Source: Komagataeibacter sucrofermentans DSM 15973
Lineage (GTDB): Bacteria; Pseudomonadota; Alphaproteobacteria; Acetobacterales; Acetobacteraceae
DNA: 64,000 nucleotides
Reading direction: 5' to 3'
Assembly (NCBI RefSeq): GCF_040581405.1
Contig: NZ_CP137157.1
Span: 2,726,001 to 2,790,000 of the forward strand
Positions 11,111-55,168 of this stretch are shown piece by piece. Every line of letters begins with the position of its first letter. Position 1 is the stretch's first letter. The notes below the pieces were generated by a model. The model did no database searches, had not been told where the DNA came from, and worked only from the letters and a program-made list of their open reading frames with translations. The position numbers and the translations under genes were made by a program.

Positions 11111-11164
11111 ACGTTTCCGGATGCCGCCTTTTTTCAGAAAGGCGGCGTTCTTCTGAAGCTTTTA
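11111..11164. repeat. Convergent-junction hairpin repeat, copy A (truncated)
   Basis: First of seven related elements. It contains the GC hairpin (gccgcctttttt followed by a mirror aaaggcggc) and then gttcttctgaagctttt, but lacks the second hairpin and right terminal repeat. It fills the gap between the convergent thiC and the frameshifted gene. Confidence 0.85.
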
Positions 11165-11174
11165 TCATCCTGCC

Positions 11175-11575
11175 TCAGTGGGAGGCCGCCACCGCCTCCC
11201 GCTGCACGGCCACCGCCGCACCGCCATCCTTGCGGATCATGAGGAAACGCCCGGACCACGACCCTTCAATCCGCCACATTCCCTCGATTTCGGTGCTGTC
11301 GGCATTCAGCCTGCCCGCATACAGCACGACATGCCGCCGGGGCCGCCTTCATAGGTTTTGGTAAAACGCACCTCGGCTGCGTGGCGCACGCCGCGCACAG
11401 TCGAGACAAAGCAGCCCGCCCCGGCCTGACCCGATGCCGGGCGCTCCGTTACCGTGCCCCCAATGGTGCCACCGGTTTCGAACAGGGAGGCGGAGAAAAA
11501 CTCCGGCGGCAACGTGCGCGGGTAGCTGAACTGACCATCCCACTGCCCCGTCACATCAAACCTGTTTTCAGCCAT
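11175..11575 (-). pseudogene. Small conserved-type protein gene interrupted by a frameshift
   Basis: The frame starting ATG at 11575 reads MAENRFDVTGQWDGQFSYPR and continues for 89 codons to a stop at 11306. The reading then clearly continues in another frame: from about 11339 it gives RRHVVLYAGRLNADSTEIEG, then FLMIRKDGG, to a stop at 11175. One base appears to be missing in the C run around 11339-11345 (minus strand GGCCCCGG). Restoring it gives a single protein of about 133 residues with a plausible beta-rich fold. This is either a real inactivating mutation or a sequencing error. No function is known to me. Confidence 0.7.
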
Positions 11576-11611
11576 GACGATCTCCCTGCCCCCGCACTGC
11601 CTGCCATAAAA

Positions 11612-11650
11612 TAAAGCGGGCCATGCCTTACAGCATGACCCGCCCTTTTT
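11612..11650 (-). terminator. Terminator downstream of ilvE
   Basis: Imperfect inverted repeat gcgggccatgc / gcatgacccgc with a short loop; read on the minus strand it is followed by a T/A-rich tail (tttatttta). It lies 28 bases after the ilvE stop codon. Confidence 0.8.
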
Positions 11651-11677
11651 CCATTTCCCTGCCGTGCGGGAGGAAAA

Positions 11678-12769
11678 TCAGATCACCTTTTCCACCCAGC
11701 CATGGGTGTCGGGCGCTGTGCCGCGCTGGATGCCGATCAGGGCATTGCGCAGCTTTGCGGTGACCGGGCCAATGCCCGCGCCATCGCCAATCACCGCCTC
11801 ACCCTTATGGCCGCGGAAGCGCCCGATGGGCGAGACCACCGCCGCCGTGCCGCAGGCGAACACTTCCTTCAGGCGGCCTGAGGCGGCATCAGCGTAAAGC
11901 TGGTCGATGGCGTAAGGCTCCTCGCGCACGGTCAGGCCCATCTCACGCGCAAGGGTGAGTAGCGAATCGCGGGTGATGCCACGCAGGATGGTGCCGGTCA
12001 GCGGCGGAGTAGCAACAGAGCCGTCATCGAACACGAAGAACACGTTCATGCCGCCCATTTCCTCGATCCAGCGGCGCTCCACCGCATCGAGGAACAGCAC
12101 CTGCGCACAGCCATGGCCCTTGGCTTCCTGCTGGGCCAGCAGGCTTGCGGCATAGTTGCCGCCGCACTTGGCCTCGCCCGTGCCGCCGGGGGCGGCGCGA
12201 CAGAAATCGGACACCCACACGCTCACCGCTTCCGCCCCGAAATAGGCGCCCACGGGCGAGGCAATGACCATGAACAGGTATTCCGACGCGGGCTTGACGC
12301 CAAGGAACGTCTCGCTCGCAATCATGTAGGGGCGTATGTACAGGCTCTCATCGGGGTTGCCTGGCACCCAGGCATGATCCACGCGCACAAGCTGGCGCAC
12401 GGCCTCGACAAACACGTCCTCGGGCAGTTCCGCCATGGCAAGGCGCGCCGCCGATTTGCGGAAGCGCGCGGCATTGGCCTGCGGGCGGAACAGGGTGATG
12501 CCCCCTTCCGCCGTGCGGTAGGCTTTCATGCCCTCGAATATTTCCTGCGCGTAGTGCAGCACGGCGGCGGCGGGGTCGAGGGTGAACGGCGCATAAGGCT
12601 GCACGCGGGCGTCGTGCCACCCCTTGCCTTCCTGGTAGCGGATCACGACCATGTTGTCGGTAAAGACACGCCCGAAACCGGGATTGGCCAGAATTTCCGC
12701 CCGTCGCTCGGGTGAGACCGGGGTCGCGGTGGGTGAAAGCGTGAAGGGAAGGGAAGTGGCGCTGTCCAT
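11678..12769 (-). CDS. ilvE: Branched-chain amino acid aminotransferase
   Basis: 363 residues, PLP-dependent fold-type IV transaminase that makes leucine, isoleucine and valine from their 2-oxo acids. Conserved segments include HYAQEIFEGMKAYR, IRPYMIASE, YAASLLAQQEAKGHGCAQVLFLD in parts (the PLP lysine region lies near GNYAASLLAQQEAK) and EEMGGMNVFFVF, with TPPLTGTILRGITRDS near the C-terminus. The length suits the larger eukaryote-like BCAT class. ATG at 12769 is preferred over 12808: it has AGAGAAA upstream and fits the family length. Followed by its own terminator. Confidence 0.96.
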   Translation of the reverse strand: MDSATSLPFTLSPTATPVSPERRAEILANPGFGRVFTDNMVVIRYQEGKGWHDARVQPYAPFTLDPAAAVLHYAQEIFEGMKAYRTAEGGITLFRPQANAARFRKSAARLAMAELPEDVFVEAVRQLVRVDHAWVPGNPDESLYIRPYMIASETFLGVKPASEYLFMVIASPVGAYFGAEAVSVWVSDFCRAAPGGTGEAKCGGNYAASLLAQQEAKGHGCAQVLFLDAVERRWIEEMGGMNVFFVFDDGSVATPPLTGTILRGITRDSLLTLAREMGLTVREEPYAIDQLYADAASGRLKEVFACGTAAVVSPIGRFRGHKGEAVIGDGAGIGPVTAKLRNALIGIQRGTAPDTHGWVEKVI

Positions 12770-12910
12770 AGCCGTTATTTCTCTTTCATCATGGCGCTGG
12801 CGCGCCATACGGAGCGCGCCCCTGCCCGCCTCAAGCTGCGGGCAACCACATCAGAAGTTCACCAGAACATTGCGCCGGTCAACCCCGCCCCGTGCGCATG
12901 CCCCCTGCTT

Positions 12911-13759
12911 TTACGCCTTGCCCAGCACAAAACCCAAGGCGCGCAGGGCGGCAGGCAGGCGCTCGCGGCCATGAAGCGCGCCGATCTCACCCAGTCGCGC
13001 CACCACGCTTCTGCTCCAGTTCCGCGCACCCGCACGGCTGGCCTCAAGGCTGGCATCATAGGCCCTGATGCCGGCTTCATCCGTGGCGGCGGGGCTGTAG
13101 CGTTCCTCATGCAGCACCATGGCCTGTGGCAGGCGCGGCTTGATGGCGGTAGGCTGCGCGCGGTCAGGGTAGCCCACGCTCATGCCAAACAGCGCAAATG
13201 TCCTGGGCGGCAGGCCAAGTTCGGCGGCAATGGCCTCGGGCTGGTTGCGCACCGCGCCCACGTACACGATTCCCAAGCCGTAGGATTCAAACGTCGCCGC
13301 TGCATTCTGCCCCGCCAGCGCCGTATCCACCACGCCGCTCAGGAATGTATCGAGGCAGTCCAGCCCCGGCAGCGCGTGACCCTGCGCGTGGCCCACATGC
13401 TCCAGCCGCGACAGGTCCACCACCCACGCCAGGAACAGCGGCGCCTGCGCGATGAACGCCTGATCGCCCGCTATTTTGGCCAGCCGGGCGCGCCGCGCGG
13501 GGTCGCGCACGGCAATCACGCTCCATGCCTGCAGGTTGCATGAACTCGAGGCCGACTGGGCTGCGGCAATCGCCGCCTCCACCACGCCTTCGGGCAGGGG
13601 GGCGGGGCTGAAATGCCGCACGGAACGATGCGCCATGAGGCTGCGCGCCACCGGGCTTTCGGGCAGCGGTTTTTCAGGCGGCTTCGTGCCATAACGGGCC
13701 TGCCACAGCGCGTTCATGGAGGACTGGGCGGAAAAGGAAGAAACGGTGGTGTCGGACAT
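12911..13759 (-). CDS. NfsA-like flavin nitroreductase family oxidoreductase
   Basis: 282 residues. FMN-dependent oxidoreductase of the nitroreductase superfamily. The N-terminus shows the family pattern SLMAHRSVRHFSPAPLPEGV and QSASSSCNLQAWSVIAVRDP, which bind FMN. A central GVVDTALAGQNAAATFESYGLG and C-terminal basic region resemble NfsA-type NADPH oxidoreductases. AGGAGG lies 7 bases before the ATG at 13759, which decides the start. The natural substrate is not evident. It is a single-gene unit, divergent from the YhdH-type reductase gene. Confidence 0.88.
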   Translation of the reverse strand: MSDTTVSSFSAQSSMNALWQARYGTKPPEKPLPESPVARSLMAHRSVRHFSPAPLPEGVVEAAIAAAQSASSSCNLQAWSVIAVRDPARRARLAKIAGDQAFIAQAPLFLAWVVDLSRLEHVGHAQGHALPGLDCLDTFLSGVVDTALAGQNAAATFESYGLGIVYVGAVRNQPEAIAAELGLPPRTFALFGMSVGYPDRAQPTAIKPRLPQAMVLHEERYSPAATDEAGIRAYDASLEASRAGARNWSRSVVARLGEIGALHGRERLPAALRALGFVLGKA

Positions 13760-14075
13760 ACGCATGCCTCCTGCCTGTGCAATGCTGGCTGAAAAAGCAG
13801 CACACCACAGCGCAACAGGGACAGGTAGCGGGGCGATATCACACCTGCCCTGCGCATTTTCATGCAACCGGCCGACCCATGGCAGCAGTGCCCCCGAACC
13901 CCTTTTGCAGATGGTCCGATTTTTTGGAAATTCGTTTCCAGATCAGCTATTTATTGCACATTATCCATCACGTTCATGCGAAATCACATGGCTGTAAATA
14001 GGAACAGACACCCAGACGGGTCATGAAGGATACAGCACCCCCCTGTTTTCATTACCAGCAAGGAAACCCGTTCGC

Positions 14076-15065
14076 ATGTTCGAGGCCCTCATGATCCGCC
14101 ACGCCGATGGCGCGACCACCACCCGGCTGGAACAGGTCGACCCCGCAAGCCTGCCACAGGGCGATGTGACGGTCGAAGTCGCGCAGTCCAGCCTCAACTA
14201 CAAGGATGCGCTGGCCATGACGCGCGGGGCGCCGGTTGTGCGGCATTTTCCCATGATTCCAGGCATTGACCTTGCTGGCCGTGTTCTCCACTCCGATGAC
14301 CCGGTCTTCCGCCCCGGCGATCAGGTTCTGGCCACCGGCTGGGGACTGGGGGAAAAGCACTGGGGCGGCATGGCTGGCATGGCCCGCCTGCCGGGGCGGT
14401 GGCTGCTGCCACACCCCGCGGGCCTGTCGGGGCGGCAGGTGATGGGCATTGGCACGGCGGGCTTTACCGCCATGCTGTGCGTCATGGCGCTGGAGGATGG
14501 CGGGCTGACGCCTGCCTCCGGCCCCATCATCGTCAGCGGGGCGGGCGGCGGCGTGGGCGGCATGGCCGTGATGCTGCTGGCGCAGTTGGGCTATCAGGTG
14601 GTGGCGGTAACGGGGCGGGCGCAGCTTCAGGCCTATCTGACCAGCCTGGGTGCTGCCGAAGTGCTGCCACGCGAAGCCCTCGCCCCTACCGGCAAGCCGT
14701 TGGAAAAAGCACGCTGGGCAGGCGGGATCGACGTGGTGGGGGGCGAGGCGCTGGCCACGATGTGCGCCTCCATCACGCAGGGCGGCACGGTGGCGGCCTG
14801 CGGGCTGGCCGGGGGCATGGCCCTGCCGCTGACTGTGGCCCCCTTCATTTTACGCAATGTGCGCCTGCAGGGAATCGACAGCGTCATGTGCCCCCGACCG
14901 CGCCGCATGACGGCCTGGGCGCGGCTTGCGCGTGACATCGACCCCACACGGCTGGACAGCATGCTGCATGACGCAACCCTGGCCGAAGTGCCCGGCCTGG
15001 CCCCGCGCCTGCTTGCGGGGCATATAAGAGGGCGGACCGTTATCCACCTCACCAATTCAAAATGA
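14076..15065 (+). CDS. YhdH/AcuI-type quinone oxidoreductase (acrylyl-CoA reductase family)
   Basis: 329 residues, zinc-free medium-chain dehydrogenase/reductase. SSLNYKDALA and FPMIPGIDLAGRV in the N-terminal GroES-like domain, then the NADPH Rossmann motif SGAGGGVGGMAVMLL (residues about 155-170) and the C-terminal IDSVMCPRPRR and GRTVIHL characteristic of the YhdH subgroup. E. coli YhdH and Rhodobacter AcuI reduce acrylyl-CoA to propionyl-CoA; the true substrate here is not provable from sequence. The stop codon abuts repeat copy B. Confidence 0.9.
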   Translation: MFEALMIRHADGATTTRLEQVDPASLPQGDVTVEVAQSSLNYKDALAMTRGAPVVRHFPMIPGIDLAGRVLHSDDPVFRPGDQVLATGWGLGEKHWGGMAGMARLPGRWLLPHPAGLSGRQVMGIGTAGFTAMLCVMALEDGGLTPASGPIIVSGAGGGVGGMAVMLLAQLGYQVVAVTGRAQLQAYLTSLGAAEVLPREALAPTGKPLEKARWAGGIDVVGGEALATMCASITQGGTVAACGLAGGMALPLTVAPFILRNVRLQGIDSVMCPRPRRMTAWARLARDIDPTRLDSMLHDATLAEVPGLAPRLLAGHIRGRTVIHLTNSK

Positions 15066-15068
15066 TAA

Positions 15069-15145
15069 AAGTTTCTGGGTGCCGCCTTTTTTCAAAAAGG
15101 CGGCGTTCTATCGAAGCTTCTTGAAAAAATCTTCGCCAAGAACTG
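15069..15145. repeat. Convergent-junction hairpin repeat, copy B
   Basis: Same orientation as copy C. The GC hairpin gccgccttttttcaaaaaggcggc is intact; the second hairpin (gaagcttcttgaaaaaatcttc) and right terminal repeat are partly diverged. It begins three bases after the stop codon of the YhdH-type gene and lies in the convergent gap to cbtB. Confidence 0.9.
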
Positions 15146-15171
15146 CTGCTTTCAAAAGTCGTTCAGGCAAT

Positions 15172-15204
15172 AAAAAACGGCAGGCGCAATGGGCGCATGC
15201 CGTT
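15172..15204 (-). terminator. Terminator downstream of cbtB
   Basis: Inverted repeat aacggcatgcgcc / cgcctgccgtt read on the minus strand, followed by TTTTTATT. It lies about 40 bases past the cbtB stop codon, on the cbtB side of repeat copy B. Confidence 0.8.
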
Positions 15205-15245
15205 CTTCACATCAGGCCATGCGGGGCGGATGCGCCCCGCGCCCC

Positions 15246-15467
15246 TTAGTGGCAGGGGAAGCCGAGCAGATGACGGCCGTCATGCACGAATTCATGCACG
15301 TAATGGCCAGAAACGAGCGAGGTCGCGCCCTGCTCCGCGCCAACGAAGTAGATCAGCAGCGAGGCCAGAACCAGCCCGAACACGCCCCACGGCAGCAGGT
15401 CGCGCACGGGAATGGCAACCGGCGGGGCGACAATATTGGCGGACAGGACGGATGTGTCTTGGCTCAT
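15246..15467 (-). CDS. cbtB: CbtB-like cobalt transporter subunit
   Basis: 73 residues with one membrane helix (LLPWGVFGLVLASLLIYFVG) and the hallmark His-rich C-terminus HEFVHDGRHLLGFPCH, which ends the protein in CbtB family members and is thought to bind cobalt. ATG at 15467 follows GGAG by about 9 bases. CbtB is normally paired with the multi-helix protein CbtA; no cbtA follows here, because the next feature is a terminator. It lies immediately beside the cobalamin gene cluster, consistent with cobalt supply. Confidence 0.88.
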   Translation of the reverse strand: MSQDTSVLSANIVAPPVAIPVRDLLPWGVFGLVLASLLIYFVGAEQGATSLVSGHYVHEFVHDGRHLLGFPCH

Positions 15468-15631
15468 GCTGAAAACTCCATGGATCATGCTCGATCCGGA
15501 GCAGTATGGCATGACAGGGCGGCTTGCAATGCCCTTGCCGTGTAACCGGATCAGCCGCCATGCTTTCAAAATCAACCGGCAAGGTCAATCATCCATTGCT
15601 CGCCCCACCCTTTCGGGCCACGCAGGGCAGC

Positions 15632-16165
15632 ATGAACCAGACCCTGACCTGCATCGCCCTGCCTGCGCCTGATGAGTTGCGCCGGGGCGTCATTCCGGCA
15701 CGCGATGCTGCCCCCATCCTGCCCGCAGGCTTCATGGCCCGCCTGCCGTCGGCCGATCGCCTTTTTGTGCCACCGCCCCTGAACAAGACCATCGGAACCG
15801 ATGCCTGCGAGGCCGTGCCCGCCCTGCAGGCGGCCGATATGGGGGCGTGGCACGGGCTTTCGCTCAAGGTTCTCCCCCCTGCCGACCTCACCCGCTGGGT
15901 GGGAGATGCCGGTTTCGCGCCACCGGGGGGTGAAAGCCGCGACTCGCTGCTGCGCCGCGCTGGCACATGGCTGGCCGCACTCCCCGCAATGCCAGCGCGC
16001 ATGCTGGTGCTGGCCGATGCCACGGTCATCCGCGCGCTTGCCATCGCGGCCCTCGGCGGTGACGGCGCCATGATGGCGCGGCTCGATATCGCCCCCCTCA
16101 CCCGCACGGTGCTGACCCGCCACGCCACATGGCGTCTGGCCACCAGCGGCGCGCCCCGGCCCTGA
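15632..16165 (+). CDS. Histidine-phosphatase-fold protein lacking the catalytic histidines
   Basis: 177 residues. Phosphoglycerate-mutase-like layout is visible: ALQAADMGAWHGLSLKVLPP matches the LxExDxGxWEG region, PPGGESRDSLLRRAGTWL is the PGGES motif, and MLVLADATVIRALAIAALG matches the usual VSHGGVIRALL strand. However, the N-terminal RHG is absent (TLTCIALPAPDE) and the second His is replaced (LADATVIRAL). It is therefore probably a non-catalytic relative. Its place between cbtB and the B12 riboswitch suggests descent from a CobC-like or cobalamin-operon phosphatase. The start ATG at 15632 gives a family-like N-terminus. Confidence 0.65.
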   Translation: MNQTLTCIALPAPDELRRGVIPARDAAPILPAGFMARLPSADRLFVPPPLNKTIGTDACEAVPALQAADMGAWHGLSLKVLPPADLTRWVGDAGFAPPGGESRDSLLRRAGTWLAALPAMPARMLVLADATVIRALAIAALGGDGAMMARLDIAPLTRTVLTRHATWRLATSGAPRP

Positions 16166-16225
16166 GGGCACGGGCTGGCATGCGGCTTTGACAGCGCGGA
16201 CCGCAATCGGCTAAATCCGCCCCTG

Positions 16226-16424
16226 ATGGTTCCCCCACAGGGAGAATAGGGAAGACGGTGCGCCACTCGGCAATGCCGTCGCTGCCCCCGCAACTGTAAG
16301 TGGTCGAATCCGGCCCGGTGCGTGCACCGGTCCCGCCACTGGTCCCTGAGGGACCGGGAAGGCCGCCGGATATTGAGGGTGTGGCCCGCCACGCCCTTCG
16401 CCACAAGCCAGGAGACCTGCCATC
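16226..16424 (+). promoter_or_regulatory. Cobalamin (B12) riboswitch
   Basis: Typical adenosylcobalamin aptamer elements are present in order: ATGGTTCCCCC, GGGAAGACGGTGCG, the core GCTGCCCCCGCAACTGTAAG around 16286, and the B12 box GCCAGGAGACCTGCC ending at about 16422. It precedes the DUF1636-cobW-cobN-cobGHIJ transcript, so cobalamin would repress its own synthesis genes. Confidence 0.95.
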
Positions 16425-16585
16425 CCCGCCCGCGCGGGACAGATGACCGTTTCGATCGCATGGCTGGCGGGGTGCCCGGCACGCGACTGGCCACCACCTG
16501 GCAATCTGCTGCCGGGCGGGGCATGACCGCGCACCCCGCTTTTTGTGCTGCCCGCCCGGCAGCGCCGCGAAAGGGCACGGACCAG

Positions 16586-16981
16586 ATGACCACTTCCCCC
16601 CAGCCAGACACGGCACCACCGCCCGTGCACCTGCATGTGTGCGTAACCTGCCGCCGCGGCCTGCCCGCATCGGACAACCCGCAGGGCAGGCAGTTGCACG
16701 ATGCCATGCAGGCACTGGCCAAAGGCGATCCCGACATTGTGGTGCATGAAGTCGCCTGCCTTGCCGCGTGCAACGACGGCTGCACCGCCGTTATCGCGAC
16801 ACCGGGCAAATGGGGCTGGCTACTGGCCAATCTCGGCCCGGAAAAGGCCGATGACCTGCTGACCTACACCAAAGCGTACGCCGCCTCGGCCAAAGGCACC
16901 GTCATGCCTTCGCGCAGGCCCGCAAGCCTGTCGGACATGGTGCGCGGCCGCTTTCCCGCATCCCTCTTTTCCGGAGTCTGA
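16586..16981 (+). CDS. DUF1636-type metal-binding protein of the cobalamin operon
   Basis: 131 residues. The N-terminal HVCVTCRRG and the central VACLAACNDGCTAV supply five Cys in a ferredoxin-like (thioredoxin-fold) pattern typical of DUF1636 proteins, which may hold a metal or iron-sulfur cluster. First gene behind the B12 riboswitch and 5 bases before cobW. An alternative ATG at 16523 would add 21 residues without homology. Its biochemical role in cobalamin synthesis is not established as far as I know; cobalt handling or electron supply to CobG are possibilities. Confidence 0.8.
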   Translation: MTTSPQPDTAPPPVHLHVCVTCRRGLPASDNPQGRQLHDAMQALAKGDPDIVVHEVACLAACNDGCTAVIATPGKWGWLLANLGPEKADDLLTYTKAYAASAKGTVMPSRRPASLSDMVRGRFPASLFSGV

Positions 16982-16986
16982 CCGCC

Positions 16987-18039
16987 ATGAACACGTCCGC
17001 CACGGCCCGCGCCAAAGTGCCCGTTACCGTCATCACCGGCTTTCTGGGCGCAGGCAAGACCACGCTGCTGCGCCACGTGCTGGCCAATGCGAAAGGCAAG
17101 CGCATTGCCATCGTGGTCAATGAATTCGGCACGCTGGGCATCGATGGCGACACGCTGCGCGCCTGCGGCGTGGAAGGCTGCACCGACGAGGATATTGTCG
17201 AACTGACCAATGGCTGCCTGTGCTGCACCGTGGCGGACGACTTCCTGCCCACCATGGAAGCCCTGCTCGACCGCGCGACCCCGCCCGACCATATCGTGAT
17301 CGAGACCTCCGGCCTCGCCCTGCCCAAGCCGCTGCTCAAGGCGTTCGGCTGGCCCACCATCCGCACGCGCATGACCGTTGACGGCGTGGTGACCGTGGTC
17401 GATGGCCCCGCCGTGGAAGCCGGCCGCTTTGCCGATGACCCCGAGGAAGTCGCCCGCCAGCAGGCCGCCGACCCCTCGCTCGACCACGACAACCCCCTGG
17501 CCGAGGTGTACGAGGACCAGCTCCTGTGCGCGGACCTGATCATGCTCAACAAGACCGACCTCATGACGCCCGCGCAGGCCGATGCGGTCGAGGCCGCGAT
17601 CCGCGCCGAGATCCCGCGCGCGGTGAAGGTGGTGCGCGCCACCGACGGGCAGGTTGACCCCGCCGTGCTGCTCGGCCTCGATGCGGCGGCGGAAGATGAC
17701 CTTGCCGCCCGCCCCTCCCACCATGATGCCGAGGGCGGCGAGCACGAGCATGATGATTTCGAGAGCTTCGTGCTGCCCATCCCCGAGCAGGACAGCGTGG
17801 AGGGCTTCATCACCCGCCTGCAAAAACTGGCCGAACAGCACGACATCCTGCGCATGAAGGGCTACGCCACCGTGCGCGGCAAGGCCATGCGGCTGGCCGT
17901 GCAGGGGGTTGGCAGCCGCTTTCGCCACCAGTTCGACCAGCCCGTGCCCAAGGATGGCCCGCGAACCGGCACCCTTGTGGTGATCGGCCAGAAGGGGCTG
18001 GACCAGGCCGCCATTGCAGCGGCCCTGGCACTGGCGTAA
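16987..18039 (+). CDS. cobW: CobW GTP-binding metallochaperone
   Basis: 350 residues, G3E GTPase. Walker A GFLGAGKT at residues 18-25, the metal-binding CxCC in NGCLCCTVADDF, the base-recognition NKTD (LNKTDLM), and a His/Asp-rich stretch (SHHDAEGGEHEHDDF) before the C-terminal CobW domain. CobW is required for aerobic cobalamin synthesis and is thought to deliver cobalt to the CobN chelatase. It lies 27 bases before cobN. Confidence 0.96.
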   Translation: MNTSATARAKVPVTVITGFLGAGKTTLLRHVLANAKGKRIAIVVNEFGTLGIDGDTLRACGVEGCTDEDIVELTNGCLCCTVADDFLPTMEALLDRATPPDHIVIETSGLALPKPLLKAFGWPTIRTRMTVDGVVTVVDGPAVEAGRFADDPEEVARQQAADPSLDHDNPLAEVYEDQLLCADLIMLNKTDLMTPAQADAVEAAIRAEIPRAVKVVRATDGQVDPAVLLGLDAAAEDDLAARPSHHDAEGGEHEHDDFESFVLPIPEQDSVEGFITRLQKLAEQHDILRMKGYATVRGKAMRLAVQGVGSRFRHQFDQPVPKDGPRTGTLVVIGQKGLDQAAIAAALALA

Positions 18040-18066
18040 GGCAAACGGCAGACGGGGGGCCGAATC

Positions 18067-21000
18067 ATGCACCTGCTGGCACGCGAGGTCCGCACGCTCG
18101 ATGAGGCCGATCAGGCCGAAGACCTCGGCCACGCCCCGGCTGATATCGTGTTCCTGTCCTTTTCGGACAGTGACCTGCTATGCCTCAACGCCGCCCATGC
18201 GGCAGGGGCCGCGCCCGATGCCAGCCTGCGCACCGCAACGCTGTCCCGCCTGCGCCACCCCATGTCGATCGACCTGTATGTGGCCGACACCATCATGGAG
18301 TCGCGCTGCGTGGTGGTGCGGCTGCTTGGCGGGCTGGAATACTGGCGCTACGGCGTGGAGGAACTCAGCCGCGCGTGCCAGCAGGCGGACATCCCGCTGG
18401 TGCTGCTGGCAGGCGACGGGCGCGACGACCCGCGCCTGGCCGAACGCTCCACCGTGACAGAGGCCATCCGCACCCGGCTCGACACCCTGCTGCGCACGGG
18501 TGGGGCCACCAACACCGCCACCGCCCTGCGGCTCATGGCCCATATTGCAGGGCGCGGGCCGGATGATGGCGCAGGCCCCGAACCCCTGCCACCGGCAGGC
18601 GTGCTGCATGCGGCCAATCCTGCCCTACCCTTTCGCGCCATGGTGGTGTTCTACCGCGCCCATCTGCTGGCTGCCGATATAGCCCCCATCACGGCACTTG
18701 CCGCTGAACTGGAGCAACGCGGCATGGGGGCGGAGCTTGTTTATGTCTCCTCCCTCAAGAACCCGGAATCGGCGGCCTTTGTCGCGGCACGGCTGGCGGA
18801 TATGCCGCCCGATGTCATCATGAACGCCACCTTCTTTTCCGCGCGCGGGGCGGCGGACAGCCCCTCACCGCTGGATATGCCGGGCGTGCCGGTGCTGCAG
18901 GTGCAGCAGCCCGGCATTGCCCACGGCCTGTGGCGCGACAGTGTGCGCGGCCTGTCGCAGGCCGACCTTGCCATGCAGGTGGTGCTGCCTGAACTCGATG
19001 GTCGCATTCCCGCCTTCCCCATCTCCTTCAAGGAGGACACCACCCCCGGCCTGCCTGCCCGCCACGTGCCCTACACGCAGGGCATTGCGCTCACCGCCGC
19101 CCGCGCGCTGGGCTGGGCGCGGCTGGGGCATGAGCTACCTGCCCAGCGGCGGGTGGGCATCATCCTGTCCGACTATCCCGGCGCGCAGGGTGCGCCCACC
19201 GGGCAGGCCGCCCATGCCGTGGGGCTGGACAGTTTTGCAAGCCTTGAACACATCCTGACCCTGCTCCACGCGGCGGGCTATGACACGGGTGACATACCCA
19301 CGGCGGACCAACTGGCACATACGCTGGCCCGCGCGCCTGCCACCGCGTTTGTATCGGTTGCGACCTATCGTGCGTGGCTTGAGGCCCTGCCGCAGGCATT
19401 GCGCGACCAGCTTGCCGCCTGCTGGGGCGCGCCAGAGGATGACCCCTGCGTGCGCGATGGCCGTTTCACCCTGCGCCACCTGCACGCAGGCCACATCCTG
19501 ATGGCGCTGCAACCCGACCGGGGCACCACAACCGACCGCCACGGCGGCTACCATGACCCCGACACCCCACCGCGCCATGCCTATGTGGCCTTCTACCTGT
19601 GGCTGCGCCACGGCTGCGGGCTGGACGCCATGGTGCATCTGGGCACGCATGGCACGCTGGAATGGCTGCCGGGCAAGGCGGCAGCCCCTTCGGCCACGTG
19701 CTGGCCCTCGGTGCTGGTAGGGGGCATGCCGGTGATCTATCCCTTCATCGTCAACAACCCCGGCGAGGCAGCCGCCGCGCGGCGCAGGCTGGGCGCCGTG
19801 ACCATTGGCCACATGACACCGCCCATCGCGGCAGTAAGCAGCGCAGGGGCCGATACGGGCGAACTCGAACGCCTGATTGATGAATATGCCGCAGCCGACG
19901 GGCTCGACCGCAGGCGGGGCGCCATCCTGCGTGGCGAGATCCTGCAACGCGCGGATGATCTGGGCCTGCTTGATGAAGGCGGCATTGCCCGCGCCGATAA
20001 CGAGGATGAAGCCCTCGCCCAGCTTGACGCCTATCTGTGCGATGTAAAAGACCTCCAGATCCGCGACGGGCTGCATGTCTTTGGCCGCCCCCCCACCCGG
20101 ACAGTGGAACTGGCCCATGCCATCGCCCGCGCCTGTGGCGACAGCGCGCCCGCCGACCTGCCCACCCGCCTGCACGCCTGCGGCGCGGCGGAGGCAGCCG
20201 CCCTGCTCGCAGCCCTTGATGGGCGGTTCGTGCCCGCAGGCCCGGCAGGTGCGCCCACCCGTGGCCGCGCCGACGTGCTGCCCACGGGGCGCAACCTGTA
20301 CGCCATGGACCCCCGCGCCATTCCCACCCGCTCGGCGCTGGTGCTGGCCGAGCGCACGGCAGCCCTGTTGCTGGAGGAACACCTGCAGGACCAGGGCGAG
20401 CCGCTGCGCGCGCTGGTGATCGACCTGTGGGGCTCGGCCAGCCTGCGCACGGGCGGCGAGGACCTGGCGCTGGCCCTGCTGCTGATGGGCGTAAGGCCGG
20501 TATGGGATGGCGCATCGGGGCGCGTAAGCGGCATCGAGGTCATTCCCATGGCAGCGCTCGACCGCCCGCGCGTGGATGTGACGCTGCGCCTGTCCGGCCT
20601 GTTCCGCGATGCCTTTCCCGGCCAGATCGCGCTGTTCGAGCAGGCGGTGCAGGCCATTGCCGCCCGCACGTTCGAAGCCCCCGACCTCAACCCGCTGGCC
20701 GCCAGCACCGCAGGGCTTGAAGGGGCGGCACGGCATACCGCCACCGCCCGCATGTTTGGCACAGCCCCCGGCAGCTACGGCACGGGGGTGGAAGACGTGC
20801 TGGCCAGCGGCCAGTGGCATGAACGTGACGGGCTGGGGCAGGCATGGCTGAATGGCTCGGCCTGGACCTATGGCGGCGGGCGCGAGGGCCAGCAGGCGCC
20901 AGACATTCTGGCCGGGCGCATGGCGCAGGCGGGCGTGCTGCTGCATGTGCAGGACCATGCCGAAACCGATATTCTGGAAAGCGTGGACATGGCCACGCAT

Positions 21001-21432
21001 GAAGGCGGCATGGCCGCCGCTGCCCACCTGCTGGGCAATACGCCCCGCCTCGTGCATGGCGATACCTCCCGCCCCGAGGCCCCCCGCCTGCGCGGCACGG
21101 TGCACGAAGTAGCCCGCGTGGTGCGCGGGCGGCTGGCAAACCCGGTCTGGCTTGCGGGCATGCGCCGCCACGGCTACCGGGGGGCAGCCGAGATCGCACG
21201 CGGCGTAGAGGCGCTGCACGGCTTTGCCGCCACCGTGCCCGCGCGCTTTGACCGACAGTTTGATCTCGCCTTCAGCCGCCTGCTCGATGACCCGGAGATG
21301 GACGCCTTCTTGCTTGAAGCCAACCCCGATGCCCACGCCACCATCCGCCGCCTCATGGCCGATGCCCTGCGCCGCGACCTGTGGCGGCCACGGCGCAACA
21401 GCGCTGGCATGTTGCTGGACCCCGCGCCATGA
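18067..21432 (+). CDS. cobN: Cobaltochelatase subunit CobN
   Basis: 1121 residues, the large subunit of the ATP-dependent aerobic cobaltochelatase that inserts cobalt into hydrogenobyrinic acid a,c-diamide. Conserved segments include MVHLGTHGTLEWLPGKA, YPFIVNNPGEAAAARRR and the C-terminal DYAETDILES-like block (HAETDILESVDMATHEGG), as in CobN/BchH/ChlH. It is somewhat shorter than many CobN proteins (about 1250 residues). The partner subunits CobS and CobT are not in this window. The stop overlaps the cobG start by 4 bases. Confidence 0.96.
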   Translation: MHLLAREVRTLDEADQAEDLGHAPADIVFLSFSDSDLLCLNAAHAAGAAPDASLRTATLSRLRHPMSIDLYVADTIMESRCVVVRLLGGLEYWRYGVEELSRACQQADIPLVLLAGDGRDDPRLAERSTVTEAIRTRLDTLLRTGGATNTATALRLMAHIAGRGPDDGAGPEPLPPAGVLHAANPALPFRAMVVFYRAHLLAADIAPITALAAELEQRGMGAELVYVSSLKNPESAAFVAARLADMPPDVIMNATFFSARGAADSPSPLDMPGVPVLQVQQPGIAHGLWRDSVRGLSQADLAMQVVLPELDGRIPAFPISFKEDTTPGLPARHVPYTQGIALTAARALGWARLGHELPAQRRVGIILSDYPGAQGAPTGQAAHAVGLDSFASLEHILTLLHAAGYDTGDIPTADQLAHTLARAPATAFVSVATYRAWLEALPQALRDQLAACWGAPEDDPCVRDGRFTLRHLHAGHILMALQPDRGTTTDRHGGYHDPDTPPRHAYVAFYLWLRHGCGLDAMVHLGTHGTLEWLPGKAAAPSATCWPSVLVGGMPVIYPFIVNNPGEAAAARRRLGAVTIGHMTPPIAAVSSAGADTGELERLIDEYAAADGLDRRRGAILRGEILQRADDLGLLDEGGIARADNEDEALAQLDAYLCDVKDLQIRDGLHVFGRPPTRTVELAHAIARACGDSAPADLPTRLHACGAAEAAALLAALDGRFVPAGPAGAPTRGRADVLPTGRNLYAMDPRAIPTRSALVLAERTAALLLEEHLQDQGEPLRALVIDLWGSASLRTGGEDLALALLLMGVRPVWDGASGRVSGIEVIPMAALDRPRVDVTLRLSGLFRDAFPGQIALFEQAVQAIAARTFEAPDLNPLAASTAGLEGAARHTATARMFGTAPGSYGTGVEDVLASGQWHERDGLGQAWLNGSAWTYGGGREGQQAPDILAGRMAQAGVLLHVQDHAETDILESVDMATHEGGMAAAAHLLGNTPRLVHGDTSRPEAPRLRGTVHEVARVVRGRLANPVWLAGMRRHGYRGAAEIARGVEALHGFAATVPARFDRQFDLAFSRLLDDPEMDAFLLEANPDAHATIRRLMADALRRDLWRPRRNSAGMLLDPAP

Positions 21433-22658
21433 CCACGGCACCGTCCGTGCGCGGCTGGTGCCCCGGCCTGCACACCCCCATGGAGGCCGCCGATGGCTGG
21501 CTGGTGCGCGTGCGCCCGCCGCTTGGCCGCCTGTCCGCCCCGCAGGCCCGCATCGTGGCCCGTGCCGCACGCACGCATGGCAACGGGCTGATTGAACTGA
21601 CCAGCCGGGGCAACCTGCAACTGCGCGGCCTGACACCGGACAGTGCGCGCGCCTTTGCCCGCGACATGGCTGAAGCGGGCCTTGCCAGCGCCGATGCCGC
21701 AACCGAGGCGCGACGCGCGCTGCTGATTTCGCCCCTTGCAGGCATCGACCCGCAGGCGGCACCCGATGCCCCCGCCATCATCGAGGCACTTGATGCCGCA
21801 CTCGCCGGGGCCGAAACCCTGCGCGGCCTGCCCGCCAAGTTCGCAATCGCGGTGGAGTGCAGGGGGTATGTGCCCGCAGGCAGCCTGCGGGCCGATATTA
21901 TGGTCCGGGCAGGCAGGGATGGCTGGCTGGTCCTCTGCGGCACGCGCGCCCTGCCCTGTGCCGCGCAGGATGTGCCGCCCGCCGTGCTGGCCCTTGCCCG
22001 TGCGCTGGCCGATATGGGCGGCCAGCCCCGCCCGCTGCGCAATCCGGCCCTTGGCGCGCAGGCCTTTGCCCGGATCGGGCGACTGGCCGCCACACGCGCC
22101 GCAACCACGCCCGCCCACGCGCCCGCCTGTCTGGCCGGGCCGCTGCCCGGTGGCGCGATGGGGCTGGTCCTGCCGCCCGGCCCCATTGGCGCCGATCTGC
22201 TTGCGGACGTAGCGCAATGGGCCGAACAGTCTGGCAATGGCCAGATGCGCGTGGCCCCCATGCGCGCCCTTGTTATTGAAGACTGCGCCACGGCTCCGCC
22301 CCTGCCTGGCCTGATCACGCAGGCAGATGACCCGCGCCTGCGCATCAGCGCGTGCATCGGCGCGCGCGGCTGTGGCTGTGCTGCGCGGGACGTGATTGCC
22401 GATGCCACCATGCTGGCCCCGGACCTGCCAGCCGGGGCCACGCTGCATGTGTCAGGCTGCCCCAAGGGCTGCGCCCATCCGGGGCCAGCCGACATCACGC
22501 TGGTGGCACAAGTGGATGGCTATGGCCTGTGCCCGCATGGCCGGGCGGCTGATACGCCTGTAGACAACGGGCTTTCGCTGGCACAGATACAGCACATCGT
22601 GCGGGACTGGCCCCGCAACCTGACCACGCCACGGAACGGGAGAACCCAACCGGCATGA
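21429..22658 (+). CDS. cobG: Precorrin-3B synthase
   Basis: 409 residues. Ferredoxin-type sulfite/nitrite reductase fold; converts precorrin-3A to precorrin-3B with oxygen, the step that marks the aerobic pathway. LTSRGNLQLRGL in the N-terminal ferredoxin-like half and the C-terminal [4Fe-4S]-siroheme-type cysteines in GARGCGCAARDV and SGCPKGCAHPGPADIT are clear. ATG at 21429 overlaps the cobN stop (ATGA), and the stop overlaps cobH in the same way. Confidence 0.94.
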   Translation: MTTAPSVRGWCPGLHTPMEAADGWLVRVRPPLGRLSAPQARIVARAARTHGNGLIELTSRGNLQLRGLTPDSARAFARDMAEAGLASADAATEARRALLISPLAGIDPQAAPDAPAIIEALDAALAGAETLRGLPAKFAIAVECRGYVPAGSLRADIMVRAGRDGWLVLCGTRALPCAAQDVPPAVLALARALADMGGQPRPLRNPALGAQAFARIGRLAATRAATTPAHAPACLAGPLPGGAMGLVLPPGPIGADLLADVAQWAEQSGNGQMRVAPMRALVIEDCATAPPLPGLITQADDPRLRISACIGARGCGCAARDVIADATMLAPDLPAGATLHVSGCPKGCAHPGPADITLVAQVDGYGLCPHGRAADTPVDNGLSLAQIQHIVRDWPRNLTTPRNGRTQPA

Positions 22659-24776: not shown

Positions 24777-24853
24777 AAGTTTTTGGGTGCCGCCTTTTTT
24801 CAAAAAGGCGGCGTCTTTTCGAAGCTTTTTGAAAAAAGCTTCACCAAAAACTT
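24777..24853. repeat. Convergent-junction hairpin repeat, copy C
   Basis: A complete copy: left end aagtttttgggtg, GC hairpin gccgccttttttcaaaaaggcggc, spacer, second hairpin gaagctttttgaaaaaagcttc, right end caccaaaaactt. The two ends form an imperfect terminal inverted repeat. It starts on the base after the cobJ stop codon and fills the convergent gap to cobK. Confidence 0.93.
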
Positions 24854-24892
24854 CTTATGATTCCAGGGTTTTTCGTGAGCAGGTTTTCCACA

Positions 24893-25636: not shown

Positions 25637-25668
25637 CTTTTCCTTCCTGCTGCTTGTAAGGCCACACC

Positions 25669-28027: not shown

Positions 28028-28057
28028 AGCAGGCAAGACCTGTTGGAGAAGTAATAA

Positions 28058-28133
28058 AAGTTTTTGGTGAAGCTTTTTTCAAAAATCTTCAAAGAGCGCC
28101 GCCTTTTTAAAAACAGGCGGTGTTCGAAAACTT
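28058..28133. repeat. Convergent-junction hairpin repeat, copy D
   Basis: Reverse orientation compared with copies A-C: left end aagtttttggtg, then the gaagctttttt hairpin, spacer, the gccgcc hairpin (slightly diverged, aggcggtgttc) and right end cgaaaactt. It lies in the convergent gap between cobM and cbiD. Confidence 0.9.
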
Positions 28134-28142
28134 TTATACTTT

Positions 28143-29234: not shown

Positions 29235-29301
29235 CGGGATGACCTTCTCGTCCAACAGGGGTAAGGGTGGCATCGCTCGCCACGCTTTAGCAGGAACGCA
29301 C

Positions 29302-37609: not shown

Positions 37610-37650
37610 AAAAAAACCCACCCGGTAATCCTGTTACCGGGTGGGTTTTC
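37610..37650 (-). terminator. Terminator of the zapE-sucAB-lpd strand
   Basis: Strong inverted repeat aaaacccacccggtaa / ttaccgggtgggtttt with a 6-base loop and a T run on the minus strand, 16 bases after the lpd stop codon. Confidence 0.93.
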
Positions 37651-47522: not shown

Positions 47523-47542
47523 CCAACTGCGCCACAGGCATG

Positions 47543-47579
47543 AAAAAAAGCCCGCGCCATGATGGCGCGGGCTTTTTTA
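47543..47579 (+). terminator. Terminator after the LTxxQ protein gene
   Basis: Inverted repeat aaaagcccgcgccat / atggcgcgggctttttt with almost no loop and a T run on the plus strand. It lies 20 bases after the stop codon, immediately before repeat copy F. Confidence 0.93.
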
Positions 47580-47589
47580 TTATGTGAAA

Positions 47590-47663: not shown

Positions 47664-47671
47664 CTGTTTTT

Positions 47672-51153: not shown

Positions 51154-51155
51154 CC

Positions 51156-51587: not shown

Positions 51588-51684
51588 AGCCCGCGCAATC
51601 GCCTGAGCAGAACATGACATTCGCGGACCGGCGGGCCGCACCCGCGGCCGGCCGTCCGAACGAGCATCGGGACACGTCCAAGAA

Positions 51685-53496: not shown

Positions 53497-53522
53497 CGTA
53501 ACGGCGGAAAAGGAACGAGACG

Positions 53523-54305
53523 ATGGTCGAATTCAGACTGCCAAAGAACAGCACGGTGGGCAAAGGCCGCATTTTCACGGCAGCCCCCGGTGCCTCCAAT
53601 GTCAAGAATTTCCGGATCTATCGCTGGAGCCCGGATGATGACAGCAACCCCGTGGTCGATACCTATGAGATCGACCTCGACAAGATCGGCCCGATGGTGC
53701 TCGACGCGCTGATCCACATCAAGAACGATGTGGACTCCACGCTCACCTTCCGCCGCTCGTGCCGCGAGGGCATCTGCGGGTCGTGCGCCATGAACATCGC
53801 GGGCGAGAACACGCTGGCCTGCCTCAAGCCCATCCGCGACATCGAGGGCGATATCGCGATCTATCCGCTGCCGCACATGCCGGTTATCAAGGATCTGGTG
53901 CCCGACCTTGATGGCGCCTATGCCCAGCTGCGCTCGATCGACCCGTGGCTGAAATCCGATACCGCGCCGCCGCCCGATTCCGAGCGCCGCCAGAGCATTG
54001 AGGAACGCGCCGAGCTTGATGGCATGTGGGAGTGCATCCTGTGCTTCTGCTGCTCCACCTCGTGCCCGTCCTACTGGTGGAATGGTGATCGCTACCTCGG
54101 CCCGGCAACGCTGCTGGCGGCCTATCGCTGGATTGCCGACAGCCGCGACGAGCATGCGGGCGACCGGCTGGATGCGCTGGAAGATCCGCTCAAGCTCTAT
54201 GCCTGCCGCACCATCATGAACTGCACCCAGACCTGCCCCAAGGGCCTGAACCCCGCCAAGGCGATTGGCCGGATCAAGGAACTGCAGCTTGAACGCAAGG
54301 CGTAA
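53523..54305 (+). CDS. sdhB: Succinate dehydrogenase iron-sulfur subunit
   Basis: 260 residues. [2Fe-2S] motif [12 protein letters not shown], then [16 protein letters not shown] and [17 protein letters not shown] for the [4Fe-4S] and [3Fe-4S] clusters. Carries electrons from SdhA to the membrane quinone. Last gene of sdhCDAB; a terminator follows 33 bases later. Confidence 0.98.
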
Positions 54306-54337
54306 GGGCTTCTTCCTTCATTCGTGATTGACGCGGA

Positions 54338-54370
54338 AAGCGCTGGATGTGAAAAATCCAGCGCTTTTTT
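54338..54370 (+). terminator. Terminator of the sdhCDAB operon
   Basis: Inverted repeat aagcgctggat / atccagcgctt with a 7-base loop, followed by TTTTTT on the plus strand. Confidence 0.93.
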
Positions 54371-54400
54371 CGTCTCCACCCATTTGAAAGGACAAGGCCG

Positions 54401-55066
54401 GTGTTTGAGGGAAACCTGTCCACCCCCGCTGGCCGAAGCCGCGCCTGGATCGACAGCCTGTTTGTTGACCACGCCATCCTGCGCCAGACCTGGACCAACT
54501 TCCGCACGGTCATTCCCGGCCGGGTCTATCGCTGCAACCACCCCACGCCGTGGCGACTGCGGCTGGCCACGCGCCGCCTGGGCCTGAAAACGCTGGTCAA
54601 CCTGCGCGGGCACCGCAAATGTGGCTCGGATGCGCTCTCACGCGAGGCAGCCCACGCCCTTGGCCTGCGGCATATCGACATGGCGTTTGAAAGCCGCAAC
54701 GCCCCCCACCGCGACCGCATCGAGCGCTTTGAGCGCATCTACCGCGATGATATCCGCTTTCCCATGCTCATGCACTGCAAGTCGGGCGCTGACCGCACGG
54801 GGCTTGCGGCGGGGCTGGTGATCCTGTTCGAGGGCGGCACGGCCAGGCAGGCGCTACGCCAGCTTTCATGGAAGAACGGGCATTTCAACTCATCACGCAC
54901 CGGCGTGCTTGATGCGTTCTTCCTGCGCTACGCGGCGGAAGCGGAAGGGCGCATTCCCTTCATGGACTGGGTGCGCACGGAATATGACGAAGACCGCCTG
55001 CGCCATGATTTCCGCGCGGGCAGGATCGCGTCCTTCATGACCGATCAGGTGCTGCGGCGGGAATGA
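54401..55066 (+). CDS. Tyrosine/dual-specificity protein phosphatase-like protein
   Basis: 221 residues. The P-loop HCKSGADRTG carries the CX5R signature with Cys126 and Arg132; the general-acid region would lie near residues 95-112. NLRGHRKCGS and the PGRVYRCNHPTPWRL N-terminus are like the DSP/tyrosine-phosphatase-type proteins found across alphaproteobacteria. The start is GTG at 54401 with AAGGACAAGG just upstream. The substrate is unknown. Monocistronic, behind the sdh terminator. Confidence 0.88.
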   Translation: MFEGNLSTPAGRSRAWIDSLFVDHAILRQTWTNFRTVIPGRVYRCNHPTPWRLRLATRRLGLKTLVNLRGHRKCGSDALSREAAHALGLRHIDMAFESRNAPHRDRIERFERIYRDDIRFPMLMHCKSGADRTGLAAGLVILFEGGTARQALRQLSWKNGHFNSSRTGVLDAFFLRYAAEAEGRIPFMDWVRTEYDEDRLRHDFRAGRIASFMTDQVLRRE

Positions 55067-55093
55067 CAATGGGGAACGCCGGTCATCATAAAA

Positions 55094-55168
55094 AAGTCTT
55101 TGGTGAAGCTTTTTTCAAAAAGCTTTAAAAACACCGTCTTTGTGAAAAACGGGCGGCACCCAAAAACT
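55094..55168. repeat. Convergent-junction hairpin repeat, copy G
   Basis: D orientation and more diverged: aagtctttggtg, hairpin gaagcttttttcaaaaagctt, then accgtctttgtgaaaaacgg in place of the GC hairpin, and cacccaaaaact at the right. It lies between the phosphatase gene and the XRE regulator, which are convergent. Confidence 0.85.

What the first reader, a model, noticed from the sequence alone, without database searches (positions are those of the whole stretch)
11111..55168. Seven copies of a double-hairpin repeat, one in every convergent gene gap
Elements at 11111, 15069, 24777, 28058, 37519, 47590 and 55094 share about 75 bp. Each has a gccgcc(T/A)ggcggc hairpin, a short spacer, a gaagcttttttc hairpin and, in most, ends of the form aagtttttgg / ccaaaaactt. 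Copies A-C and D-G are reverse complements of each other. All seven lie between the 3' ends of convergent genes, and every convergent pair with a gap has one; the only exception, the TusA-like gene with rimI, overlaps and has no room. None lies upstream of a gene. This points to a mobile REP- or MITE-like family kept as a two-way transcription terminator.
Basis: seen in the sequence. Interest (0 to 1): 0.75.

Follow-up and report, generated by a model that had tools for sequence, protein, structure and literature searches.

The report
Jumping DNA ending two facing genes
Vinegar-making and cellulose-making bacteria carry many copies of a tiny jumping element that folds into a double hairpin and often sits between genes that run towards each other, where it probably stops transcription from both sides.

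Summary
In detail: seven related ~80-bp double-hairpin elements lie at the stated places, one in each of the window's seven convergent gaps with room; the eighth convergent pair overlaps. The genome has at least 150 copies. In an 850-kb sample, 33 of 88 convergent gaps hold one, against 18 of 478 tandem and 2 of 88 divergent; none of 54 has its midpoint inside a called gene. So "every convergent gap" is local.

The element is the worn core of a ~162-bp MITE. Of 19 copies with perfect ends (GAGACTGTTTGAAAA) fetched from other genomes of the genus, 18 have identical 3-bp flanks, 17 of them TNA, as in IS1031/IS5-group elements. Most copies have lost these ends but keep the core.

The core folds as a three-way junction with T-rich sequence outside its closing stem on both strands. 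A two-way terminator is the best reading, but termination is inferred: no transcripts were examined, a consensus scan flags none of copies A-D, and gaps without a copy often lack a recognised terminator too.

The parts
11109..11185 (+). Copy A: worn copy, first hairpin intact, second half decayed; between thiC (ends 11105 +) and a small ORF (11306-11554 -)
   Evidence: 65 bits; flanking genes (no Pfam match for the small ORF)
15067..15147 (+). Copy B: between an alcohol-dehydrogenase-like gene (stop at 15065) and a cbtB-like gene on the - strand
   Evidence: 90 bits
24775..24855 (+). Copy C: near-consensus copy; MITE-derived sequence reaches 24762-24890; its first bases overlap the stop of a tetrapyrrole methylase gene (ends 24776); cobK/cbiJ-like gene on the other side
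   Evidence: 106 bits; MITE model positions 25-153 of 162
28056..28135 (-). Copy D: between a tetrapyrrole methylase gene (ends 28027 +) and cbiD (28143 -)
   Evidence: 86 bits
37517..37596 (-). Copy E: between a GGDEF/EAL gene (ends 37471 +) and a dihydrolipoamide-dehydrogenase-like gene (37666 -)
   Evidence: 99.5 bits
47588..47665 (-). Copy F: between an LTXXQ gene (ends 47522 +) and a glucose-6-phosphate dehydrogenase gene (47672 -)
   Evidence: 87 bits
55092..55171 (-). Copy G: present here; the same gap in the 6 relatives that could be compared is 7-14 bp without an element (a seventh, G012, had no match there)
   Evidence: 74 bits; flanking genes
47550..47578 (+). Ordinary GC-rich hairpin plus T-run next to copy F (coordinates read by eye)
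   Evidence: sequence; one search scores terminators on both strands of this gap outside the element
15177..15205 (-). Ordinary terminator-like hairpin for the - strand gene next to copy B (coordinates read by eye)
   Evidence: sequence
37617..37645 (-). Ordinary terminator-like hairpin next to copy E (coordinates read by eye)
   Evidence: sequence

Best explanation
The seven elements are worn copies of a non-autonomous transposon (a MITE of about 162 bp, ends GAGACTGTTTGAAAA, 3-bp TNA target duplication, so of IS1031/IS5 type) that carries a two-way transcription terminator. Copies settle at or just behind gene ends. There two hairpins, closed by an 8-12 bp stem that is flush with a U-tract on either strand, would release RNA polymerase arriving from either gene. 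After insertion the transposition ends decay and the terminator core stays. Because the job is nearly symmetric, the core can lie in either orientation, and its orientation changes over evolutionary time. Shown: MITE anatomy, identical 3-bp flanks, family spread, location, fold, T-tracts, orientation changes in the same gap, loss of ends. Inferred: termination itself, the identity of the transposase, and selection as the reason the core is kept.
For: MITE: 21 exact inverted pairs of the 15-mer 146-150 bp apart in the genus, one of them in this genome (my count from the listing). Of the 20 in other genomes 19 were fetched (one at a contig edge was left out); 18 of 19 have identical 3-bp flanks, 17 of the TNA type, including 8 of 8 in genome G005. 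This genome's own full-length copy on contig C2 has TAA on both sides, read in the element's direction. IS1031-group preference for TNA: PMC12016507, one passage. Location: convergent 33/88, tandem 18/478, divergent 2/88 (Fisher 2e-17 and 1e-9); in named acetic acid bacteria 62 convergent, 28 tandem, 4 divergent, 23 undetermined of 117. Terminator anatomy: three-way-junction folds on both strands of two copies; at least 5 T in the first 8 bases outside the stem in 109 and 105 of 130 copies on the two strands, against 0 and 7 of 130 at +29-36; no other standard terminator in 28 of 38 element-bearing convergent gaps. Retention: of 352 model matches, 14 reach both MITE ends, 69 one, 269 neither. 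Symmetry: in orthologous gaps orientation is 12 same/3 different, 7/4 and 9/4 between close species, 19/19 to distant ones, with one in-place inversion between alignable flanks (locus 25).
Against: No transcript 3' ends were examined. A consensus terminator scan of window 10001-30000 lists 8 sites, fewer than in shuffles (11.3), and none inside copies A-D. In my own test a standard hairpin-plus-T-run inside the element is found on the top strand in 22 of 35 copies but on the bottom strand in 1 of 35. Convergent gaps without an element also often lack a standard terminator: 25 of 42, or 15 of 30 for gaps of 40 bp or more, against 28 of 38 with an element, so lack of another terminator is weak evidence. 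In tandem gaps the top-strand orientation is somewhat favoured, 31:15, so function may not be symmetric. Covariation is modest (25 double-changed cells against 11.6 in shuffles; 12 of 26 double changes between orthologs keep pairing). G-U against A-C counts (49 against 72) do not single out an RNA strand. Harmless insertion behind genes would also give much of the location bias: pneumococcal BOX, RUP and IS elements show it too (PMC3049150). One worn plasmid match lies under an annotated hypothetical protein (H11). No intact transposase with matching ends was identified.
Confidence: 0.7

Rival explanations
1. Harmless passenger: the MITE has no function for the host. It lies between convergent genes because insertions there do least damage, and its hairpins are only what transposon ends look like.
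For: BOX, RUP and IS elements of pneumococcus are also over-represented between convergent genes (PMC3049150). Young full-length copies are already 7 convergent, 7 tandem, 0 divergent, 5 undetermined of 19. Stems of orthologs diverge only a little slower than flanks, 0.133 against 0.172 substitutions. Gaps without the element also often have no standard terminator, 25 of 42, so the host does not seem to need one there.
Against: The arms are lost far more often than the core; indels are 3 times rarer in stems than in the first 25 flanking bases, 0.025 against 0.077; copies persist in the same gaps across species in either orientation. Detection by the core favours copies that kept it, which weakens the first point.
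Confidence: 0.22
2. mRNA 3'-end stabiliser or RNase processing site: termination happens elsewhere, and the double hairpin protects or trims the 3' ends of both transcripts.
For: Stable folds on both strands; location directly behind stop codons. Leaving out the terminators behind a reporter halved its signal in Gluconobacter (PMC8426231, passages), so 3' structure matters there; whether one of those terminators is a copy of this family is unknown.
Against: The T-tract on each strand just outside the closing stem is what a terminator needs and a stabiliser does not.
Confidence: 0.12
3. A DNA-level element: a cruciform or protein-binding site that absorbs the supercoils that build up between converging RNA polymerases.
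For: Convergent location; palindromic DNA; no strong bias towards G-U or A-C mismatches on one strand.
Against: 18 of 54 copies lie behind single genes in tandem gaps; a cruciform needs no T-tracts.
Confidence: 0.05
4. REP/BIME-type repeat moved by a Y1 (RAYT) transposase.
For: High-copy, palindromic, extragenic.
Against: No PF01797 match in the genome, while 5 of 14 control genomes ring; terminal inverted repeats and identical 3-bp flanks instead.
Confidence: 0.02

Closest known systems
SPRITE of Streptococcus pneumoniae (PMC3049150, passages read)
   Same: Short interspersed MITE-like repeat shaped like an intrinsic terminator, enriched between convergent genes (15 of 30) and close to stop codons; co-option as terminator was proposed.
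   Different: SPRITE is a single 18-bp duplex with one U-rich tract, ends AAAA/TTTT only, no target duplication established, 30 copies. Here: two hairpins in a three-way junction, T-tracts on both strands, 15-bp perfect ends, TNA duplication, at least 150 copies, several genera.
MITEs of the IS5 family, IS1031 group (TNA target: PMC12016507, one passage)
   Same: Perfect short terminal repeats, 3-bp TNA duplication, ~162 bp; this genome also holds an IS with nearly the same ends (GAGCCTGTTTGGAAA and GAGCCTGTTTGAAAA against GAGACTGTTTGAAAA), TAA flanks and IS4/5-type transposase pieces.
   Different: No intact transposase with these exact ends was identified, so the parent IS is not named.
DUS/USS-pair terminators of Neisseria and Pasteurellaceae (PMC1852404, passages)
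   Same: A genome-wide repeat used in terminator hairpins.
   Different: Those are uptake signals of about 9-11 nt, generally 1000 copies or more, in inverted pairs; here a transposon about 162 bp long.
A-tract/stem/T-tract terminators of low-GC Firmicutes (PMC1590033, passages)
   Same: A-rich left flank and T-rich right flank around a stem; the authors say they may work both ways near convergent genes.
   Different: In the passages read those are not one repeat family and not mobile; here the stem is a three-way junction in a window of 65% GC.
REP/BIME elements (abstracts in the listing; further details recalled)
   Same: High-copy extragenic palindromes.
   Different: No RAYT transposase found here; identical 3-bp flanks and terminal repeats present.

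Membership tests
MITE (non-autonomous transposon) | Short, with perfect or near-perfect terminal inverted repeats | tested here: met
   161-165 bp with 15-bp perfect terminal repeats in 19 copies (chosen by that criterion)
MITE (non-autonomous transposon) | Target-site duplication of fixed length | tested here: met
   identical 3-bp flanks in 18 of 19 perfect-end copies. Among the 13 distinct profile matches that reach both ends, worn ones included, 5 have identical TNA flanks, 1 identical TTG, 7 do not match
MITE (non-autonomous transposon) | Presence/absence at orthologous sites | tested here: met
   gap G filled here and empty in the 6 relatives that could be compared; this worn copy no longer shows clean ends
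IS5 family, IS1031 group | 3-bp TNA duplication | tested here: met
   17 of 19 identical and TNA, 1 ATA/ATA, 1 unmatched TCG/TTA; group rule from PMC12016507
IS5 family, IS1031 group | Autonomous partner with the same ends and an IS5-type transposase | tested here: inconclusive
   one IS with 13 of 15 and 14 of 15 matching bases at its two ends, TAA flanks and DUF4096/DDE pieces; 33 DUF4096 matches in the genome, their ends not checked
Intrinsic (Rho-independent) terminator | Stable stem directly followed by a U-tract, both strands | tested here: met
   folds of two copies on both strands, T-tracts in 130 copies; the stem next to the tract is A/T-rich
Intrinsic (Rho-independent) terminator | Compact GC-rich hairpin directly before the U-tract, both strands | tested here: not met
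   top strand 22 of 35 copies, bottom strand 1 of 35; the consensus scan flags none of copies A-D
Intrinsic (Rho-independent) terminator | Transcript 3' ends at the U-tract | not testable with these tools
   no transcript data at hand
REP/BIME | Y1 REP-associated transposase in the genome | tested here: not met
   0 matches to PF01797
DUS/USS | 9-11 nt uptake motif in about 1000 or more copies | not tested
   no motif count was made; the repeat unit here is far longer

The most novel reading that the evidence does not exclude
A transposon has become a common way to end facing transcription units in a whole branch of acetic acid bacteria. It travels with a ready-made two-way terminator, can insert exactly in stop codons because TAA and TGA fit its TNA target and are rebuilt by the duplication, then sheds its transposition ends and keeps the terminator, which can lie either way round because its job is nearly symmetric.
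Probability: 0.53. Interest if true: 0.75.

Novelty: new variant of a known kind. Interest (0 to 1): 0.62.

Why it matters
Mobile elements are well known to bring promoters (recalled); terminators spread by transposition are mostly a suggestion: a 2024 review calls Rho-independent terminators from MITEs 'conceivable' (PMC10969869, passages). Here is a family with clear transposon ends, at least 150 copies in one genome, a strong 3'-end location and visible steps from young copy to bare core. It lets one test directly whether transcript ends evolve by transposition, and it may offer two-way terminators for engineering cellulose and vinegar bacteria. It would also help annotation, since standard hairpin-plus-T tests see the element poorly.

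Tried and rejected
REP/BIME origin: rejected for lack of a Y1 transposase and the presence of 3-bp duplications.

Known RNA family: Rfam at gathering thresholds gave only a cobalamin riboswitch in the window.

One-strand RNA element: G-U against A-C counts did not point to one strand. Strand by replichore: 74 plus and 75 minus among 149 contig-C1 copies; no pattern seen.

Concerted evolution: orthologs between close species in the same orientation are more alike (0.863 mean identity, 20 pairs) than unlinked copies within this genome (0.782), so descent is mainly vertical there; to distant species this signal is gone (0.780 and 0.764). Copies in the same gap of distant species may therefore be separate insertions rather than flips.

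Candidate autonomous element in G015 (1046 bp between perfect ends): it holds a cytochrome c gene between two MITE halves; no transposase was seen in it.

Stop-codon targeting as a special preference: in 11 of 44 end-reaching sides facing a gene the stop codon is exactly the boundary trinucleotide (10 TAA/TGA, 1 TAG). Leaving out one ortholog and the TAG case, 9 of 42 exceeds uniform insertion at 1 in 100 (p 3e-10) but not a rough 1-in-8 chance for TNA sites near gene ends (p 0.10); both chances are my guesses, so no special targeting is claimed.

Link to an experimentally used two-way terminator of Gluconobacter oxydans (100 bp behind GOX0028): the sequence is not in the passages I could read; open.

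Literature: searches listed no paper that I recognised as describing this repeat. Only listings, starts of abstracts and passages were read, of an open-access library, so 'not in print' is not claimed.

Weak points of method. The first version of my gene caller could lose genes at chain breaks; it was used. The genome census was redone with a corrected version; the census of named genomes and the ortholog table (which lost the first ~70 kb of one joined stretch) were not. One search classified 80 of 120 fetched named loci, and all were found by a core 23-mer. The ortholog table holds gaps chosen because they are convergent or hold a copy here. Comparisons between three close species share loci: six distinct loci (3, 4, 5, 8, 13, 25) differ in orientation, and locus 13 is a remnant whose orientation is doubtful. 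In one search the anchor pattern itself demands an A two bases left of the stem, so one T of the bottom-strand tract is forced. Some stretches are held twice (L200 = L210, L174 within L075, and others). The copy count is a lower bound: 150 of 1215 candidates were scored.
Full report
What was claimed and what is there. All are present at the stated starts, three in one orientation and four in the other. The consensus is AAAAGTTTTTGG-GTGCCGCCTTTTTTCAAAAAGGCGGC-GTTCTTTC-GAAGCTTTTTGAAAAAAGCTTC-A-CCAAAAACTTTT: a closing stem around two hairpins. Both strands of copies C and E fold into this three-way junction with z near -6 and 0 of 200 shuffles as good. In 43 aligned copies 91.7% of pair cells form standard pairs; 25 cells have changes on both sides, against 11.6 in shuffles (0 of 500 as high) and at most 19 in slid controls.

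Genome-wide census. Model R1, built from the seven copies, gives 150 matches in the 3.44-Mb genome, all at E of 2.2e-5 or better; 150 of 1215 candidates were scored, so this is a lower bound. I took 786.5 kb of contig C1 as systematic stretches (20 kb every 73.5 kb, one shortened where it met the window) plus the window, and called genes with my own fifth-order frame model. Of 54 elements at 35 bits or more (profile search), 33 lie in convergent gaps, 18 in tandem gaps, 2 in divergent gaps, 1 at an edge, 0 with midpoint inside a called gene. By gap: convergent 33 of 88, tandem 18 of 478, divergent 2 of 88; for gaps of 80-199 bp, 25 of 36, 5 of 116 and 0 of 21 (Fisher p 2e-17 against tandem and 1e-9 against divergent for all gaps). 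The element itself lengthens the gaps it lies in, so the counts over all gaps are the fairer ones. In tandem gaps 17 of 18 lie within 51 bp of the upstream stop codon. The window is richer than the rest: 7 of 7 against 26 of 81 convergent gaps (p 7e-4).

Other genomes. R1 matched all 18 other genomes of the genus that were searched, 1 of 17 same-family genomes outside it and 0 of 24 same-class genomes. R2 matched 67 of 397 genomes of the family, 20 of 102 genera, some weakly. In 80 of the 120 named loci, 117 elements divide into 62 convergent, 28 tandem, 4 divergent, 23 at edges (older gene caller). Six places on annotated plasmids, whose gene tables are incomplete, give 3 convergent, 2 tandem and 1 uninformative, with no annotated feature under the core match. 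With the full MITE as query one more, worn plasmid match lies under an annotated hypothetical protein (H11). No phage record matched at E 1e-3.

It is a MITE. On a Novacetimonas plasmid the core lies inside a 16-bp perfect inverted repeat. The same form exists on contig C2 of this genome: 162 bp, ends GAGACTGTTTGAAAA, flanked by TAA on both sides. The 15-mer occurs in 18 of 19 genomes of the genus, with 0 for the reversed control; from the listing I count 21 inverted pairs 146-150 bp apart. Of 19 of these fetched with flanks, 18 have identical 3-bp flanks (11 TTA, 3 TAA, 2 TGA, 1 TCA, 1 ATA); the exception is TCG/TTA. Eight lie in one genome, G005, and all eight match. I did not check whether some of the others share one ancestral insertion; L233 is the same K. 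rhaeticus copy as L138. Among the 13 distinct matches of a full-length profile that reach both ends, worn ones included, 5 have identical TNA flanks, 1 has TTG/TTG and 7 do not match. A 3-bp TNA duplication is the habit of the IS1031 group of the IS5 family (PMC12016507, one passage). This genome has an IS with near-identical ends, TAA on both sides and DUF4096/DDE transposase pieces; no intact partner with the exact ends was identified, and the ends of most of the 33 DUF4096 matches were not checked.

From MITE to core. A profile of three full-length copies gave 352 matches in the DNA then held, some stretches held twice: 14 reach both ends, 69 one end, 269 neither; core positions are covered by about 280-340 matches, the outer 13 positions by 10-76 on the left and 47-88 on the right. 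The window copies lie between MITE positions 21 and 153. Flanks of 130 distinct copies show fading base preferences outward that resemble the MITE arms by eye. Some boundaries coincide with a stop codon: 11 of 44 end-reaching sides that face a gene, and a K. nataicola plasmid copy starts exactly at the annotated stop of an aldo/keto reductase gene. TNA target choice plus selection against insertions in genes may be enough to explain this.

Turnover and orientation. Across three close species (this genome, G003, G004), 18 of 24 compared gaps have an element in all three; one, gap G of the window, is filled only here; 2 have none in any; the other 3 are mixed or lack one species. At the same gap orientation differs in 3 of 15, 4 of 11 and 4 of 13 comparisons between close species, which is six distinct loci, one of them doubtful, and in 19 of 38 between close and distant ones. 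Locus 25 shows the element inverted in place between alignable flanks. Recombination or template switching between the arms would do this without a transposase (inference; similar small inversions in chloroplast 3' hairpins are recalled, not looked up); for distant species separate insertion is as likely.

How it probably works. On either strand the closing stem ends in CCAAAAAC, directly followed by T-rich sequence: mean 5.4 and 5.2 T in the first 8 bases, at least 5 T in 109 and 105 of 130 copies, against 0 and 7 of 130 further out (one T of the bottom-strand tract is forced by the anchor pattern). This is a stem plus U-tract on both strands, with an A-rich left and T-rich right flank as described for terminator-like stem-loops of Firmicutes (PMC1590033, passages). 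In 28 of 38 element-bearing convergent gaps (30 bits or more) no other standard terminator was found on either strand; but the same is true of 25 of 42 gaps without an element, 15 of 30 if only gaps of 40 bp or more are counted. The strands are not equal: a standard hairpin-plus-T test is passed by the top strand in 22 of 35 copies and by the bottom strand in 1 of 35; the consensus scan of window 10001-30000 flags none of copies A-D and finds fewer sites (8) than in shuffles (11.3); and in tandem gaps the top-strand orientation is favoured 31 to 15 (p 0.026). Termination was not observed; it is inferred.

Selection or tolerance. Pneumococcal BOX, RUP and IS elements are also enriched between convergent genes, which was read there as tolerance (PMC3049150). 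Here the youngest copies already avoid divergent gaps (7 convergent, 7 tandem, 0 divergent, 5 undetermined). In 28 ortholog comparisons, not all independent, substitutions are 0.133 in stems, 0.157 in loops and 0.172 in the first 25 flanking bases, and indels 0.025, 0.040 and 0.077. The core is thus somewhat protected and the arms are not, which supports a function, but not strongly. Detecting copies by their core adds a bias in the same direction.

Verdict.

Noticed in passing
window 16225-16424 (+): Cobalamin riboswitch (95 bits, Rfam RF00174) in a region with several cobalamin-synthesis genes.
   Followed up: no
G000 contig C1, 1.2-2.1 Mb: High-scoring copies are scarce in the middle of the main contig: 10 of 149 against 45 expected by length; in the sample 4 of 24 convergent gaps there hold a copy against 29 of 64 elsewhere. 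A terminus effect or younger DNA is possible.
   Followed up: partly
L240 1001-2046 (G015 C52): A cytochrome c gene lies between two MITE halves whose outer ends form a perfect inverted pair 1046 bp apart; it may be a captured cargo gene or two separate insertions.
   Followed up: partly
G003, gap D of the window (L005 about 2366-2836): Two facing copies of the element bracket a small ORF; G004 has two copies without that ORF.
   Followed up: no
L040 3236-4963 (G000 C1:1399736-1401463): An IS with ends almost equal to the MITE's, TAA flanks, and IS4/5-type transposase pieces in separate open frames.
   Followed up: partly
G005 (whole genome): 47 exact MITE end sequences and 8 full-length copies, the most among the 19 genomes searched; the MITE may be active or recently active there.
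   Followed up: partly
L189 (record titled Alistipes MAG): One exact 23-mer match in a record named outside the family; contamination or chance, not examined.
   Followed up: no
Gluconobacter oxydans GOX0028-GOX0029 (PMC7055074): A 100-bp two-way terminator between convergent genes is used in engineering and terminates well by RNA-seq according to the paper; whether it belongs to this family could not be checked.
   Followed up: partly
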